From the NCBI RefSeq assembly GCF_013285555.1, contig NZ_JAAXLT010000210.1, positions 1-35,144 on the forward strand: a DNA stretch of 35,144 bases, given 5' to 3'. Below, piece by piece: positions 95 through 35,144 of this stretch. A model generated the notes under the pieces. It did not search any database. It worked only from the letters and a program-made list of their open reading frames with translations, and was not told the DNA's origin. A program made the translations under genes and the position numbers. Within the stretch, counting starts at the first letter, position 1. Each line of letters begins with the position of its first letter. The DNA is from Candidatus Cyanaurora vandensis (GTDB lineage: Bacteria > Cyanobacteriota > Cyanobacteriia > Gloeobacterales > Anthocerotibacteraceae).

Positions 95-583
95 TTAGTT
101 GAGGGTGTTAAAACCGAGATTCACTAAGGGGTACAAAAGCATCAAGCTAAAAAAACCGTATCCCATACGCAATTTCGTCAGGCCCCGTATCACGATCCGC
201 CAACGATCGCTGTCGTTCAATAGGGGGTCCCGGCGTACTCGGAGCAACCACTTACCATCAATGTAATTTTCGATACTCCGGTGCTGTACGCCTGTTGGCA
301 TCGCCTCGCAAATCTCGCCATCACCCAGATAAATCGCTGCATGGCCCCAGCGAGCATGCTCTTTCGGATACCCCCCGGTCATTTGGTATTTAAAAATCTG
401 CTCGTGTGTCCAATTCCGTTCTATTTGCCCAACCAATAGTAAATCCCCCGGCAACCAGTCATCAGTATTGGGGTACAAACCCAGTTGGCGAGTCAAAGGC
501 AAAATGAGGTCAATGGAACTGGAAGTGTACTGATTACTGGTTTGCCTATCTTGGGGATCAAGAACTATTTGGGGGCTGGGCAT
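95..583 (-). CDS. YiiX-like (permuted NlpC/P60 papain-fold) protein, short
   Basis: Predicted 162-residue protein resembling the YiiX/YebB branch of the NlpC/P60 superfamily, which hydrolyses amide or ester bonds in peptidoglycan or lipids. The family signature is a phrase of the type GDLLLVG, then a His just before an AIYLGDG strand and an Glu-containing ICEA strand (about residues 45-95). In this permuted family the nucleophilic Cys lies C-terminal to that His, but here the protein ends with a hydrophobic stretch (FFSLMLLYPLV) and no Cys-Ser-Glu-like motif follows. The C-terminus may therefore be truncated or the protein inactive. An ATG at 583 with AAGG about 8 bases upstream supports the start. 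Downstream DNA to the window edge shows no continuation. No signal peptide is visible. The family call is moderate and the activity unknown. Confidence 0.5.
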   Translation of the reverse strand: MPSPQIVLDPQDRQTSNQYTSSSIDLILPLTRQLGLYPNTDDWLPGDLLLVGQIERNWTHEQIFKYQMTGGYPKEHARWGHAAIYLGDGEICEAMPTGVQHRSIENYIDGKWLLRVRRDPLLNDSDRWRIVIRGLTKLRMGYGFFSLMLLYPLVNLGFNTLN

Positions 584-623
584 CGGCGGCCTTTTTCACG
601 GGTCCTTAAAGATTTTCAACCTA

Positions 624-896
624 CTACCTGATTGCCCTACCTAAGTTGGGCAGAATCCATGGGCGGGGATTAGCATCCTCAAGGATCTTTAACCGCGCTA
701 CTCGATCGCCCTCTACCGTAAATTTAACGTGAGTTCCAGCACGTAAATTCAGTTCACGTAGACTCTCACCACGGTAGTCGGGGATGGCTTTCAAAGAAAA
801 TACATACTGACGATTGGTTCCCTCTTCCGTCAAGAAACCAAAACCATCGGGCATGATCCGGGTCACTTTTCCTTGCAGTGTGGATGGGTGTAGCAT
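624..896 (-). CDS. Cold-shock-domain-like nucleic-acid-binding protein
   Basis: A 90-residue protein whose first ~70 residues form a cold-shock-type OB fold. It opens with GKVTRIMPDGFGFLTEEG, which contains the RNP1-like GFGFLT. An RNP2-like YVFSL follows, and then the basic strand HVKFTVEGDRVARLKI. Such proteins bind single-stranded RNA or DNA and act as RNA chaperones in the cytoplasm. It is longer than a classical 66-70-residue CspA protein and has a loop (AIPDYRGESLRELNLRAG) between strands, so it belongs to a divergent CSD group. AGGA eight bases before the ATG at 896 supports the start. It lies downstream of the aminotransferase on the same strand, separated by about 85 bases that include a hairpin. 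Confidence 0.75.
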   Translation of the reverse strand: MLHPSTLQGKVTRIMPDGFGFLTEEGTNRQYVFSLKAIPDYRGESLRELNLRAGTHVKFTVEGDRVARLKILEDANPRPWILPNLGRAIR

Positions 897-965
897 CGTT
901 TGTTCCTATATTTCACATCTCTCTGTGAATATCATAGCCCGGTCTTGTAGAAGTCGTCTCGTCCC

Positions 966-992
966 TGAAGGTAGGCGTACCCTATACCTTCA
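966..992 (-). terminator. Hairpin over the aminotransferase stop codon
   Basis: TGAAGGTA and TACCTTCA form an 8-bp inverted repeat separated by 11 bases. On the minus strand the left arm contains the last codons of the aminotransferase and the loop begins with its TAG. No T-run follows, so it may be an mRNA-stabilising or partially terminating hairpin between this gene and the cold-shock gene. Confidence 0.35.
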
Positions 993-2157
993 CCCTCATG
1001 AACTCCCCCAAGTGCGTCACGGCTTGGGCTAAAACTCGGGGCGGGTGCACTAGGGCAAAGCGCACGGACCCCTCACCGAGACTGCCAAAACCCGAGCCTG
1101 GAGCCAAAGCTACACCGGTTTCGCGGACTAGTTGGGTGCAAAAGCCGATGGAGTCTTCTCGCCAAGGAGTAGGGAGGGCGGCCCAGAGGTAAAGGGTAGC
1201 CTCGGGGCGGGGGACCGACCAGCCGAGATTATCTAAGTAGTAGAGCATTTTGTCGCGCCGTTCCTGGAAGGTATCCACCCCAGCTTGGACACAATCCTGC
1301 GGACCGGTGAGGGCGGCGGCGGCCCCATCGAGGATGCCCCGGTACTGGTTGAAATCCACCACCGCTTTAACTTGACGGAGGGCACGGATGACCTCTTGAT
1401 TGCCCACGGCAAACCCAATCCGAAACCCCCCCATGTGGTAGGACTTGGACATCGTAAAAAATTCAATCGTGACCCTGCGTTTGGGGTCTGCCTGGAGCAT
1501 GGAGGGGGGACGATAGCCGTCAAAAGCCAAGTCACAGTAGGGAAAGTCATGGACCAATACGAGGTCATGACGTTGACAAAAAGCCACAGCTTCTTCAAAG
1601 AAACTCAGGGTCGCCGTTGCTGTCGTGGGGTTGTGGGGATAGCTCAACAACAGAAAACGACTCCGCCGCAGGACCTCCCCTGGAATAGCAGTCAAGTCCG
1701 GCAGGAACCCAGCTTCTGGATAGAGGGGCAACGGGTAAACCTCACCGCCAGCGAGATACACCCCGCCACTGTGGGAGGGATAGCCCGGATTGGGAATGAG
1801 GGCGATATCGCCGGGGTCCATTAAGGCCAAGGGTAGGTGGGCAGTCCCCTCTTGGGAACCAATCAAGGGCAAAACCTCCGTCTGGGGGTCCACCTGGAGC
1901 CCGAAACGTTGCTCGATCCACTGGGCCACCGCCAGCCGGAAGTTTTGGGTGGCGGCGAACAATAGATAACCGTGGCTCGTGGTGTCCCGAAAGGATTGCT
2001 CAATGGCGGCTAGGGCATGGGCGGGAGCCGACAAGTCCGAGGAACCCAAGGAAAGGTCAATCACGGTACGTCCCAACGCTCGCGCCTCAGCCTTGGCCTG
2101 GTCCATTTGGGCACAGACATTGTGGGCCAAGGGTGTGAGCCGACGGGAGAAACGCAT
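982..2157 (-). CDS. PLP-dependent class I/II aminotransferase
   Basis: About 391 residues, fold-type I aminotransferase, cytoplasmic. Visible features in order are a substrate-side segment DLSLGSSDLSAP near the N-terminus, GSQEGTAHLPLALMDPGD, NPGYPSHSGG, the SYPHNPTTA strand, an HDFPYCDLAFDG strand (Asp and Tyr contacting PLP), and MSKSYHMGGFRIGF, whose Lys is the predicted Schiff-base residue. A C-terminal FALVHPP replaces the usual RxSF-like arginine strand. Overall wording resembles LL-diaminopimelate and aspartate aminotransferases of the DapL/YfdZ group, but substrate cannot be fixed by eye. The open frame extends to 2256, but the ATG at 2157 is preferred because AAGGA sits about 8 bases upstream and the protein then begins at the usual family position. 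The nearest upstream gene is the repeat protein, whose stop lies about 100 bases away. Confidence 0.85.
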   Translation of the reverse strand: MRFSRRLTPLAHNVCAQMDQAKAEARALGRTVIDLSLGSSDLSAPAHALAAIEQSFRDTTSHGYLLFAATQNFRLAVAQWIEQRFGLQVDPQTEVLPLIGSQEGTAHLPLALMDPGDIALIPNPGYPSHSGGVYLAGGEVYPLPLYPEAGFLPDLTAIPGEVLRRSRFLLLSYPHNPTTATATLSFFEEAVAFCQRHDLVLVHDFPYCDLAFDGYRPPSMLQADPKRRVTIEFFTMSKSYHMGGFRIGFAVGNQEVIRALRQVKAVVDFNQYRGILDGAAAALTGPQDCVQAGVDTFQERRDKMLYYLDNLGWSVPRPEATLYLWAALPTPWREDSIGFCTQLVRETGVALAPGSGFGSLGEGSVRFALVHPPRVLAQAVTHLGEFMRVKV

Positions 2158-11016: not shown

Positions 11017-11237
11017 GCAAGTTGTATAGTTGCCCTAGTCGGACCTGACCATCTTAGTAATGCTCTGTGGGCAGTTGAGCGTGACTTGGGTTACGCGGTG
11101 CAAAAGACCGATCATTCTTAGGAAATTGCATATAAAGTTAGCCATTTTCAAAAGAAGCTCTATGATAATGACGTTTTCGCCCGGTGGGATGACCCCGACT
11201 AACAGGGTATGCTCACAGGGAAACATGAAGCTCTACC

Positions 11238-20700: not shown

Positions 20701-20771
20701 GAACTACTGTTATCCAGAGAGAGAGCCCCCAGCCTTTAAGATGGATAGAACCTCTACCGTTGGAGTCAGGT

Positions 20772-21821
20772 TTGTCCATTGATACCCCCCGTCCGGTCTA
20801 TCCCTTCGCGGCGATCATCGGTCAAGAAGAGATGAAGATGGCCCTCTTGCTCAACGTGATTGACCCCAAAATTGGCGGGGTGATGATTATGGGCGACCGG
20901 GGTACGGGTAAGTCCACCACGATCCGTGCCCTTGTTGACCTTTTACCCCAGATAGAAGTGGTCCAAGGCGACCCCTACAACTCCGACCCCCAACGCCCAG
21001 AACTAATGAGCGATGAAGTCCGTGCCCGTAAACGCGCGGGCGAGGACCTACCAACAACGTACTGCCCCTTGCCCTTGGTGGACCTGCCTTTGGGCGCGAC
21101 GGAGGACCGGGTCTGCGGCACAATTGACATCGAACGGGCCTTGGGCGAGGGGATTAAAGCCTTTGAGCCCGGTCTACTCGCCAAAGCCAACCGGGGAATT
21201 TTGTATGTGGATGAAGTCAACCTCCTGGATGACCACTTGGTCGATGTCCTCCTTGATAGCGCGGCCTCCGGTTGGAATACCGTGGAGCGCGAAGGGATCT
21301 CGATTCGCCACCCGGCCCGCTTTGTCCTGATTGGCTCCGGCAACCCCGAGGAAGGCGAATTACGCCCCCAGTTACTCGATCGTTTCGGGATGAGTGTCGA
21401 AGTCCGCACCGTCAAAGACCCCAAACAACGCGTCCAGATTGTCCGGGAACGGACCCGCTTTGAGCAGGACCCCCTCCTCTTCACCCGCACCTACAAAGAC
21501 GCGCAAGAAGTCCTGCGCCACCAACTCACCACGGCTCAAGCCCGCCTCCCCCGAGTCACCCTGACCGAGGAACTGGAACTCAACATCGCCGAGATCTGTG
21601 CTGAACTGGATGTGGACGGCTTGCGCGGCGACCTCGTGGTCAATGGCAGTGCCCGCGCCCTCGCCGCCCTCGAAGGCCGTACCGTCACCACTGTCCAAGA
21701 CCTTGAGCGCGTCATCGTCCCCTGTCTACGCCACCGCCTCCGCAAGGACCCCCTAGAGACGATAGATTCCGGGAACAAAGTCCTCAAGGTCTTTCGTCGG
21801 GTCGTCGGTCTGCCAGATTGA
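20772..21821 (+). CDS. chlI: Magnesium chelatase ATPase subunit I
   Basis: About 349 residues, an AAA+ ATPase that with ChlD and ChlH inserts Mg2+ into protoporphyrin IX, the first committed step of chlorophyll synthesis. The protein shows [18 protein letters not shown], Walker [44 protein letters not shown] (Walker B) and [19 protein letters not shown] with sensor and arginine-finger residues. A C-terminal helical part follows with [22 protein letters not shown]. The frame opens at TTG 20760, but TTG 20772 has GGAG 6 bases before it and is my preferred start. Neither is ATG. It is separated by about 60 bases from purA on the same strand. Confidence 0.95.
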
Positions 21822-34065: not shown

Positions 34066-34197
34066 GCCAGTCTGAACCGCAACTTCCCCGGACGCATGGA
34101 CGACAAACAGGCCCAAGTCTACCTAGCTTCTCCTTACACTGTGGCGGCTTCAGCAATCCGGGGTCACATCACGGACCCACGGGAATTTTTGGCGTAG
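34066..34197 (+). pseudogene. 3' end of a leuC-like gene (isopropylmalate dehydratase large subunit)
   Basis: The ~370-base gap between the carboxypeptidase and the right-edge gene has only one recognisable piece. A plus-strand frame reads [20 protein letters not shown], then [20 protein letters not shown] and LA before TAG. This follows closely the C-terminus of LeuC (pattern [10 protein letters not shown]...VYLASP.T.AASA..G.ITDPR), an aconitase-family enzyme of leucine synthesis. Upstream the frame closes after eight codons without any LeuC sequence. The fragment is the last ~43 residues of a deleted or rearranged copy. An inverted repeat overlaps its stop. Confidence 0.65.
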
Positions 34198-34237
34198 TTC
34201 TTATACAGATGGTTTTTCAAATACGATGAACTACGCC
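34191..34237. repeat. Inverted repeat over the leuC-relic stop codon
   Basis: GGCGTAGTTC (34191-34200) and GAACTACGCC (34228-34237) are perfect 10-bp inverted copies separated by 27 bases. The left arm includes the TAG of the leuC relic. It might be a former terminator, a recombination scar or a repeat arm near the boundary of the AT-rich segment. Confidence 0.5.
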
Positions 34238-34251
34238 CCAAAACTACTTAC

Positions 34252-35001
34252 CTAAACATAAAAATTTCGATTTGACAATGTAGTGTAGTTTCCTCTAAAC
34301 GGGTCCGGTAAGCCGGGTGGTAGGGTGAGATTTTGTAAGGCCGCCACGAAGTCAGCAAATGTCATAAAAAGAGTACTTGAAACGTGAGTGATAGGAATAG
34401 CTCCAGAAGAAGTAGACAAAACTTCTGACATACCAATCAACGCAACCTCCCATCCTGGAAAATATGGGCCTCCCGCAGGAATAGAGCGTCTGATATAAGC
34501 ATGTAAAACATCTCCAGTCACTAATGCGAAAGCACCGGAAAACTGTAGAGAGAGGAGTGCTTTCTTTAAGATTTGCTCAAGCTGTCTTTTCCAGACATTG
34601 TTAGGAATTATTCCAGGTACATTGACTTTTTGTATACCTAAGTGTCTACGTAAGTACTGAGTACTAAGCTGCTGAGAAAGGAAACTATTATTTGGCGTAG
34701 ATTGGTGTGTCCAATCATTCACATATCTCGTAATTGTACCTGTATTACTTGTCTCACCTCCCCCTTGAATTTCTAAAATAACCCGACTTGGGACACAAGG
34801 GTTACTAACTCTAGGGGCGACTTGAAGCACGTAATCCAAAATTAATCTCCCTGGATTAAGATTCACGCCGATTTGACGTTGGAAACCGACATCTCCAGCA
34901 TTGACACCTGGAAATAAATTTTGGGTTACAGAGTCTAGCGCAGTAATATGAGCTGGCGTAAGTGTCGCGGCTTGTGCTGGAATTAAGCGGTTTGAGCACA
35001 C
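34252..35001 (-). CDS. Restriction-endonuclease-like protein, possibly 5' frameshifted
   Basis: 249 residues from a GTG at 35001, encoded by distinctly AT-rich DNA. The only suggestive motif is SRVILEIQGGGETSNTGTIT (about residues 73-92): a beta strand with Glu-x-Gln followed by Gly-rich and Thr-rich turns, reminiscent of PD-(D/E)XK nucleases of the NotI type where Gln replaces Lys. An Asp in LILDYVLQV precedes it. Another frame from ATG 35068 reads MQLIEVPFCS, and dropping one T near 35035 joins it to RVHGKNSTAPPFIVCSNRLI of this frame, giving a Cys pair before the core. I infer a possible single-base frameshift. No methyltransferase partner is visible. The family call is tentative. Confidence 0.35.
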   Translation of the reverse strand: MCSNRLIPAQAATLTPAHITALDSVTQNLFPGVNAGDVGFQRQIGVNLNPGRLILDYVLQVAPRVSNPCVPSRVILEIQGGGETSNTGTITRYVNDWTHQSTPNNSFLSQQLSTQYLRRHLGIQKVNVPGIIPNNVWKRQLEQILKKALLSLQFSGAFALVTGDVLHAYIRRSIPAGGPYFPGWEVALIGMSEVLSTSSGAIPITHVSSTLFMTFADFVAALQNLTLPPGLPDPFRGNYTTLSNRNFYV

Positions 35002-35068
35002 AATGAAAGGCGGTGCTGTAGAATTCTTTCCATGGACGCGAACAGAAGGGCACCTCGATTAATTGCAT

Positions 35069-35144
35069 CCTAATTGCTGAAGATTAGTGAAAGTGAGAAA
35101 ATAAAAAAGACCTCACCAAAAAATTACGATGGGCCAACAAGGGA
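35069..35144. other. AT-rich right edge, presumed upstream region of the last gene
   Basis: Short stretch with homopolymer A/T runs, read on the minus strand as the leader of the restriction-endonuclease-like gene (TTAGG just before ATG 35068). No promoter, RNA or repeat could be assigned. Confidence 0.3.

What the first reader, a model, noticed from the sequence alone, without database searches (positions are those of the whole stretch)
34252..35068. AT-rich orphan gene with a nuclease-like ILEIQGGG core
Base composition differs from the rest of the window. The E-x-Q strand and upstream Cys residues hint at a PD-(D/E)XK nuclease, and a possible one-base frameshift lies near the start. It is the best candidate here for an unfamiliar defence gene.
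Basis: inference. Interest (0 to 1): 0.5.

Follow-up and report, generated by a model that had tools for sequence, protein, structure and literature searches.

The report
NotI-like restriction gene split by IS
The AT-rich gene at the window's right edge is most of a known kind of DNA-cutting defence enzyme (a NotI-type restriction enzyme), cut in two by a jumping gene, so its partner DNA methylase, which sits on another contig, is probably left alone.

Summary
The ORF is real, AT-rich (42.7% G+C against 56.8%) and a nuclease, but neither an orphan nor frameshifted. It is the C-terminal four fifths of a type II restriction endonuclease, minus strand 34252-35047 (PADLOC REase_II PDLC03464, E 2.6e-15). 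The rest of the gene lies at the end of contig C44. C44 and the window's contig end in the left and right ends of an IS element with five left and five right ends in the assembly; their flanks share a 4-bp repeat (TTCT), and the empty site reads in frame. The supposed frameshift is this IS border.

Of 66 loci of its relatives, 32 carry a relative of the nuclease. A full-length relative folds like NotI (3c25, Foldseek E 5.5e-8; Z 18.5), and the window piece also aligns best to NotI (Z 10.6), though the Pfam NotI profile misses it. Some E. coli records name the nuclease 'NotI family restriction endonuclease'. Verdict: an inactivated member of a known kind; interest low.

The parts
34252..35047 (-). 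C-terminal part of a NotI-type type II restriction endonuclease gene; protein piece P0001 (263 aa) starts at 35043
   Evidence: ORF; PADLOC PDLC03464 positions 114-311 of 318, E 2.6e-15; 28-row alignment; VIA-align 3bvq_B Z 10.6
34756..34779 (-). ILEIQGGG strand with the E-x-Q of the active site (E91, Q93 of P0001); the conserved Asp (D70) is at 34834-34836
   Evidence: D70, E91 and Q93 are invariant in 28 of 28 aligned sequences; their catalytic role is inferred by recalled analogy with NotI
34996..34998 (-). Cys codon (C16 of P0001), the fourth Cys of the conserved N-terminal Cys set; the other three are in the C44 piece
   Evidence: alignment; C44 piece
35044..35047 (.). 4-bp target-site repeat (TTCT read on the minus strand), shared with the flank on contig C44
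35048..35144 (.). right end of an IS element; the contig ends inside it. It contains the TAA at 35059-35061 and the ATG at 35068 that looked like a frameshift
   Evidence: same sequence at or near the ends of contigs C150 (97 bases), C125 (99), C68 (98) and C216 (49); on C125 it runs into a transposase-like start; a diverged copy on C226 encodes a DUF772 transposase domain, E 3.1e-17
34075..34197 (+). decayed copy of the 3' end of a leuC-like gene, tail to tail with the restriction gene
   Evidence: 223-bp block (window 34075-34297), 90.6% identical to C168:11051-11273, which holds the end of a full 469-aa leuC-like gene followed by the last 15 codons of the restriction gene

Best explanation
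The finding is the C-terminal part (about 264 codons) of a type II restriction endonuclease of the NotI type, inactivated by insertion of an IS element (DUF772-type transposase). The intact gene followed, and overlapped by 20 bp, a C5-cytosine methyltransferase gene of the M.EcoHK31I type, whose motif IX is read from another frame inside the main ORF and so is probably carried on a second polypeptide. When whole, the nuclease would bind a GGCC-centred site (YGGCCR is the best guess) and cut unmethylated DNA with a D...E-x-Q metal site, while the two-chain methyltransferase protects the host. In this genome the IS separates codons 1-54 (three of the four Cys) from the catalytic part, so restriction is most likely off and the methyltransferase is solitary. 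Shown: split gene, IS ends, matching 4-bp repeats, in-frame empty site, neighbouring methyltransferase, fold match to NotI. Inferred: the contig join itself, recognition site, loss of activity, present methylation.
For: PADLOC REase_II PDLC03464 matches the window piece (E 2.6e-15, profile 114-311 of 318) and the C44 piece (E 3.5e-7, profile 1-51); a search of the own genome at E up to 10 finds just these two places. The IS ends appear as five left ends and five right ends at contig ends; C44 and C201 share the flank TTCT, and four of the five left and right ends pair by an identical 4-bp flank. The empty site reads ...PICSVRVHGKNS in frame, matching the family consensus PVCSVR. The C44 methyltransferase hits PF00145 E 2.1e-54 and is 60% identical over 291 aa to an E. 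coli methyltransferase whose neighbour is annotated NotI family restriction endonuclease. 32 of 66 methyltransferase loci hold a relative of the nuclease. Fold: L034 relative model pLDDT 91.3, NotI 3c25_A E 5.5e-8, Z 18.5 over 271 residues; window piece pLDDT 78.2, NotI 3bvq_B Z 10.6 over 223 residues, next non-NotI row Z 7.2.
Against: No Pfam, NCBIfam or PDB sequence match for the window piece. Pfam NotI (PF12183) is reached only weakly, by 3 of 27 relatives (best E 0.078), and not at E 0.1 by the two E. coli proteins tested, one of which RefSeq names NotI family. The PDB sequence search with the 27-row profile did not list NotI up to E 10. Foldseek with the window piece's own model gave no hit at E 0.001, and NotI was not among the 50 of 64 rows shown. 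The piece is only 24-31% identical to its relatives, whereas those share 44-85% with their first row, and it lacks an otherwise invariant Cys (C67 of L034) and the Trp of the same region (W59). The C44-C201 join is inferred from IS ends, repeat and gene halves; no read spans it, and one of the five IS pairs (C170/C125) does not match.
Confidence: 0.93

Rival explanations
1. The catalytic fragment is still made from an internal start (GTG at 35001) and acts as a shortened nuclease or nickase.
For: The frame is open over 249 codons without a stop and keeps D70, E91 and Q93.
Against: It lacks the N-terminal 54 codons with three of the four conserved Cys; all 27 aligned relatives keep that part. 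No ribosome binding site or expression evidence was sought.
Confidence: 0.04
2. The IS lies in only part of the population or can leave, so the system is on in some cells (a phase switch).
For: The 4-bp repeats match, the IS ends are nearly identical to those on other contigs, and the empty site is in frame, as expected of a recent insertion.
Against: No uninterrupted copy was found in this assembly. Precise excision of such elements is not usual (recalled).
Confidence: 0.05
3. A different, unfamiliar nuclease family, not NotI-like.
For: Sequence profiles for NotI do not recognise it, and plain Foldseek of its own model does not reach NotI.
Against: NotI is the best fold match of the full-length relative and of the window piece in the VIA-align second look, well above the next rows; E. 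coli relatives carry the NotI family name in some records.
Confidence: 0.02
4. A real one-base frameshift at the start, with an ATG at 35068.
For: An ATG-led ORF of 70 aa in another frame overlaps the start.
Against: 35048-35144 is IS sequence found at or near the ends of four other contigs, so the ATG and the in-frame stop are not part of the gene.
Confidence: 0.005

Closest known systems
NotI restriction endonuclease (PDB 3c25, 3bvq)
   Same: Best fold match of a full-length relative (Z 18.5, 271 residues) and, in the VIA-align look, of the window piece (Z 10.6, 223 residues); an E-x-Q strand and an N-terminal Cys cluster (NotI's own residues recalled)
   Different: 13-16% identity; about 310 residues against 342-354 in the NotI chains; no Pfam NotI match of the piece; recognition site probably shorter (inferred)
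EcoHK31I / EaeI restriction-modification (YGGCCR)
   Same: M.EcoHK31I is a two-chain C5 methyltransferase with only motif IX on the smaller chain (PMC3404938, passage read); here motif IX also sits apart, in another frame. The E. coli relative has a 309-aa main ORF and a 176-codon second-frame ORF, the sizes that I recall for M.EcoHK31I alpha and beta
   Different: Sequences of EcoHK31I and EaeI themselves were not compared. Own gene order is methyltransferase then nuclease on one strand; 30 of 32 relatives are convergent. Own nuclease is split by an IS
'NotI family restriction endonuclease' next to 'DNA cytosine methyltransferase' in E. coli (for example NZ_CP115376.1)
   Same: Methyltransferase 60% identical over 291 aa; nuclease 28% identical over 222 aa, E 4e-22, and 46% over the first 54
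   Different: Convergent and in one piece in NZ_CP115376.1; tandem and interrupted here

Membership tests
NotI-type restriction endonuclease | PD-(D/E)XK fold closest to NotI | tested here: met
   NotI is rank 1 for the full-length relative and for the window piece in the VIA-align second look; plain Foldseek of the window piece gave no significant hit
NotI-type restriction endonuclease | catalytic D ... E-x-Q | tested here: met
   D70, E91 and Q93 invariant in 28 of 28; residue-by-residue match to NotI's catalytic residues is recalled, not tested
NotI-type restriction endonuclease | N-terminal four-Cys metal site | tested here: met
   C31, C38, C49 and C62 invariant in 27 of 27 relatives; own copies: three in P0003 on C44, one in P0001. 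Metal binding not testable; a fifth invariant Cys (C67) is missing here
NotI-type restriction endonuclease | curated NotI profile (PF12183) above its cut-off | tested here: not met
   no hit for P0001 or P0003; 3 of 27 relatives, best E 0.078; none of two E. coli relatives at E 0.1. So I say NotI-like fold and type, not Pfam NotI member
NotI-type restriction endonuclease | cleavage at a GGCC-centred site | not testable with these tools
   needs enzyme assay
PADLOC REase_II PDLC03464 | match of the gene to the profile | tested here: met
   P0001 114-311, E 2.6e-15; P0003 1-51, E 3.5e-7; 27 of 27 relatives
Type II restriction-modification system | cognate methyltransferase next to the nuclease | tested here: met
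   MTase ORF L014:241-1197(-) overlaps the nuclease start at 260 by 20 bp; 32 of 66 relatives' loci hold both. That the two act on the same site is inferred
M.EcoHK31I-type two-chain C5 methyltransferase | motif IX in a different polypeptide from motifs I-VIII and X | tested here: inconclusive
   motif IX is in the +1 frame in 36 of 36 sequences read and the second frame is open 169 codons upstream in own, as expected; two polypeptides were not observed
functional restriction system | uninterrupted nuclease gene | tested here: not met
   gene in two pieces on C201 and C44, each ending in the IS

The most novel reading that the evidence does not exclude
The IS has turned the system into a solitary two-chain methyltransferase (alpha plus a beta nested in the other frame) that is now kept for its own sake, for example as a protective or regulatory methylase. 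The nested beta would then be an overlapping gene held by selection across bacteria and archaea, independent of the nuclease.
Probability: 0.12. Interest if true: 0.4.

Novelty: new member of a known kind. Interest (0 to 1): 0.2.

Why it matters
It closes an apparent 'unknown defence gene' as a broken member of the NotI-type family and shows that contig-edge orphans can be IS-split genes whose partners lie on other contigs. For specialists, the wider family (32 loci with both genes, from enterobacteria to a methanogen) gives intact relatives and shows how consistently the nested second methyltransferase frame is kept.

Tried and rejected
Sequence searches of the window piece gave nothing in Pfam, NCBIfam, PDB sequences or plasmids. 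The pattern scans of genome contigs and viral contigs, which reach close relatives only, had 36 and 3 pattern matches and no confirmed relative. Of 59 genomes (own included), 2 matched: own and one weak hit, E 0.0075. The route through the neighbouring methyltransferase worked. PADLOC REase_II in 291 genomes of the class, own included: only the own genome at E 1e-5, 0 of 14 controls; at E up to 10, 3 of 14 control genomes rang, so hits that weak were ignored. The nuclease of L037 found no plasmid.

Rejected: that the methyltransferase itself is frameshifted. I first read its motif IX in another frame as decay, but all 36 sequences read show it (own, L021-L054, L065; L037 and L038 are identical there), so it is the normal design. 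For the phase count 26 of 36 matched my anchor pattern and 25 of equal length were used (one with an extra codon was dropped): the most variable codon position is the first in 14 of 20 informative codons of the motif IX stretch (3 second, 3 third), against the third in 18 of 20 codons before it and 22 of 23 informative codons after it. My later pattern missed L050, and in L054 the main frame is open only 90 codons upstream.

A second nuclease copy in L033 and the nuclease of L054 are themselves in pieces; no conclusion drawn. Alignment A3 left out 5 of the 32: L038 (same hit as L037), L047, L048 and L054 (partial or in pieces) and L050 (missed by my ORF rule). The Pfam family hit by most relatives was TolB_N, 6 of 27, all weak and taken as chance.

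Literature: EcoHK31I gave 4 papers, of which I read passages in PMC3404938, PMC3439449 and PMC6456624 (the last showed nothing on EcoHK31I itself). The original EcoHK31I paper is not held. 'NotI family restriction endonuclease' gave 0 papers. Searches were seen as listings; passages of PMC3925955 (an m4C methyltransferase for YGGCCR) and PMC3812077 were read and add nothing decisive.

Full report
What is in the sequence. The minus strand of 34252-35001 carries a GTG-started ORF of 249 aa; the same frame is open up to 35058. G+C of 34252-35047 is 42.7% against 56.8% for window 1-34000, and 0 of 665 sliding windows of the same length in 1-34000 are as low. The ILEIQGGG core is there. The search of the own genome shows that the window is a whole contig (G000:C201, 35144 bases) and that its last bases recur at or near the ends of four other contigs: 97 bases on C150, 99 on C125, 98 on C68 and 49 on C216. 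On C125 the repeat runs on into MGQQGMWDWEQRHQKLEEQKSFLI; a diverged copy on C226 (73%) has a 157-aa ORF with a DUF772 transposase domain, E 3.1e-17. So the gene's own sequence stops at 35047 and the suspected frameshift is the gene/IS border.

The other half. The PADLOC profile REase_II (PDLC03464, 318 positions) matches the window piece P0001 at positions 114-311 (E 2.6e-15). In the own genome the same profile finds one other place, C44:99-260, at positions 1-52. That piece (P0003, MPISIAEYLGQRTD...CPFSGGTCIKLGHNPPLQPIC) stops at a different repeat, the left end of the IS, which occurs at five contig ends, as the right end does. Outside the IS the flanks are TTCT for both C44 and C201; likewise TCAA for C184 and C150, TAAC for C108 and C68, and TTAA for C168 and C216. 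The pair left over, C170 (ATAG) and C125 (TTTT), does not match. Joining 30-base flanks shows the empty site PICSVRVHGKNS in frame, as in relatives (consensus PVCSVR).

The neighbour. Directly upstream of the N-terminal piece on C44, overlapping by 20 bp and on the same strand, is a 318-aa C5 methyltransferase ORF (PF00145 E 2.1e-54). C44 continues with hemJ and hisD. The methyltransferase is also AT-rich (46.8% against 57.0% for C44:1301-20000). A scan for its relatives gave 66 loci. A profile of 27 full-length nucleases, without any own sequence, finds a relative of the nuclease in 32 of the 66: 30 convergent with the methyltransferase and 2 (L048, L050) on the same strand as here. The same profile scores the window piece at E 7.5e-28 and the C44 piece at 9.1e-9.

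What the nuclease is. Among the 27 relatives, C31, C38, C49, C62, D131, E149, Q151 and the GGGET that follows are invariant (L034 numbering). In the window piece D70, E91 and Q93 are kept, and the four Cys are kept across the two pieces, but a fifth invariant Cys (C67) and the Trp before it (W59) are not, and identity to relatives is only 24-31%. AlphaFold2 gives pLDDT 91.3 for L034 and 78.2 for the window piece. L034 matches NotI 3c25_A with Foldseek E 5.5e-8 and VIA-align Z 18.5 over 271 residues; the next row that is not NotI has Z 7.1. The window piece has no Foldseek hit at E 0.001 and NotI was not among the 50 rows shown, but among 856 chains aligned by VIA-align NotI is first with Z 10.6 and 10.1 (223 and 216 residues), the next row being 7.2. 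By sequence the link to NotI is weak: Pfam NotI is reached by only 3 of 27 relatives, best E 0.078, by neither of two E. coli relatives at E 0.1, and the 27-row profile did not list NotI among PDB sequences up to E 10. So the sequence-profile membership test is not met.

Known relatives. 86 of 5,426 complete E. coli genomes hold DNA similar (60-80% identity) to the pair of Providencia rustigianii (L037), 81 over at least 80% of it. Of the 10 records listed, 3 call the nuclease 'NotI family restriction endonuclease' and 7 'hypothetical protein' (one of each read). PMC3404938 (passage read) states that M.EcoHK31I (YGGCCR) consists of two polypeptides and that only motif IX is on the smaller. PMC3439449 (passage read) calls it naturally split and places the methyl group on the internal cytosine of YGGCCR. 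That the small chain is read from another frame inside the large one, and the sizes 309 and 176 aa, I recall; in the E. coli relative the main ORF is 309 aa and the second-frame ORF 176 codons from its first possible start.

The two-frame methyltransferase. In own and 35 related loci, 36 of 36 read, motif IX (consensus VRRMLPSEYExLQGFPxxWT) is in the +1 frame relative to the TLDSRG-type stretch before it and the GNAV motif after it. In 25 aligned sequences the most variable codon position switches for about 22 codons to the one expected if the second frame is the coding one, then switches back (counts under Tried and rejected). 14 more distant loci that matched the same pattern have motif IX in a frame that is open 240 codons or more upstream, that is, in the main frame. 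This supports a two-chain enzyme as the normal state of this clade; it is a known design, and the two chains were not observed here.

Mobility. Besides the split gene, the last 25 codons of a similar nuclease (68%) remain on C8 and the last 15 codons (87%) on C168 (the C168 match is weak as protein, E 0.47, but 96% as DNA). A 223-bp block (90.6%) joins the end of a leuC-like gene to the nuclease tail both on C168, with the full 469-aa gene, and in the window, where only the decayed leuC end remains (34075-34197). So this system, or its relatives, has probably moved or been duplicated and deleted in this genome. No relative was found in 290 other genomes of the class at E 1e-5. Horizontal gain is likely (inference).

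Verdict. A NotI-type restriction endonuclease gene of an EcoHK31I-like system, disrupted by an IS. Activity loss, recognition site and present methylation are inferred. The nuclease guess was right; orphan, frameshift and unfamiliarity were not.

Noticed in passing
L014 (G000:C44) 363-902 (-) inside 241-1197 (-), and 35 related loci: C5 methyltransferase motif IX lies in a second frame nested in the main ORF in 36 of 36 sequences; frame A stays open over the stretch in each of them, and the codon that overlaps the Tyr/Cys-Glu step of motif IX reads Arg in frame A in 25 of 25, as if stops were avoided in both frames.
   Followed up: partly
L015 (G000:C168) 11049-11093 and L009 (G000:C8:26254-26328): Two further remnants of the nuclease's 3' end (15 and 25 codons) at other loci, one behind a full leuC-like gene.
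   Followed up: partly
window 34075-34197: Decayed 3' end of a leuC-like gene, part of a 223-bp block shared with C168 at 90.6%.
   Followed up: partly
contigs C44, C170, C108, C184, C168 and C201, C150, C68, C125, C216 of G000: Five left and five right ends of one IS break the assembly; four of five pairs can be matched by 4-bp target repeats, C170/C125 cannot. The C170 flank repeats the IS end, as if nested.
   Followed up: partly
L033 7481-8150: A second, broken copy of the nuclease beside an intact one in a Paenibacillus genome.
   Followed up: no
NZ_CP101197.1 4524932-4528110 and NZ_CP101222.1 352910-356088 (hits H8, H9): In two E. coli genomes the match to the same pair is stretched to 3,179 bases in two pieces with an IS3 family transposase annotated under it, so an IS may sit in this pair there too.
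   Followed up: no
window 20760-21821: ChlI magnesium chelatase subunit (TIGR02030 E 3.6e-164), so the host probably makes chlorophyll; perhaps a cyanobacterium (inference).
   Followed up: no
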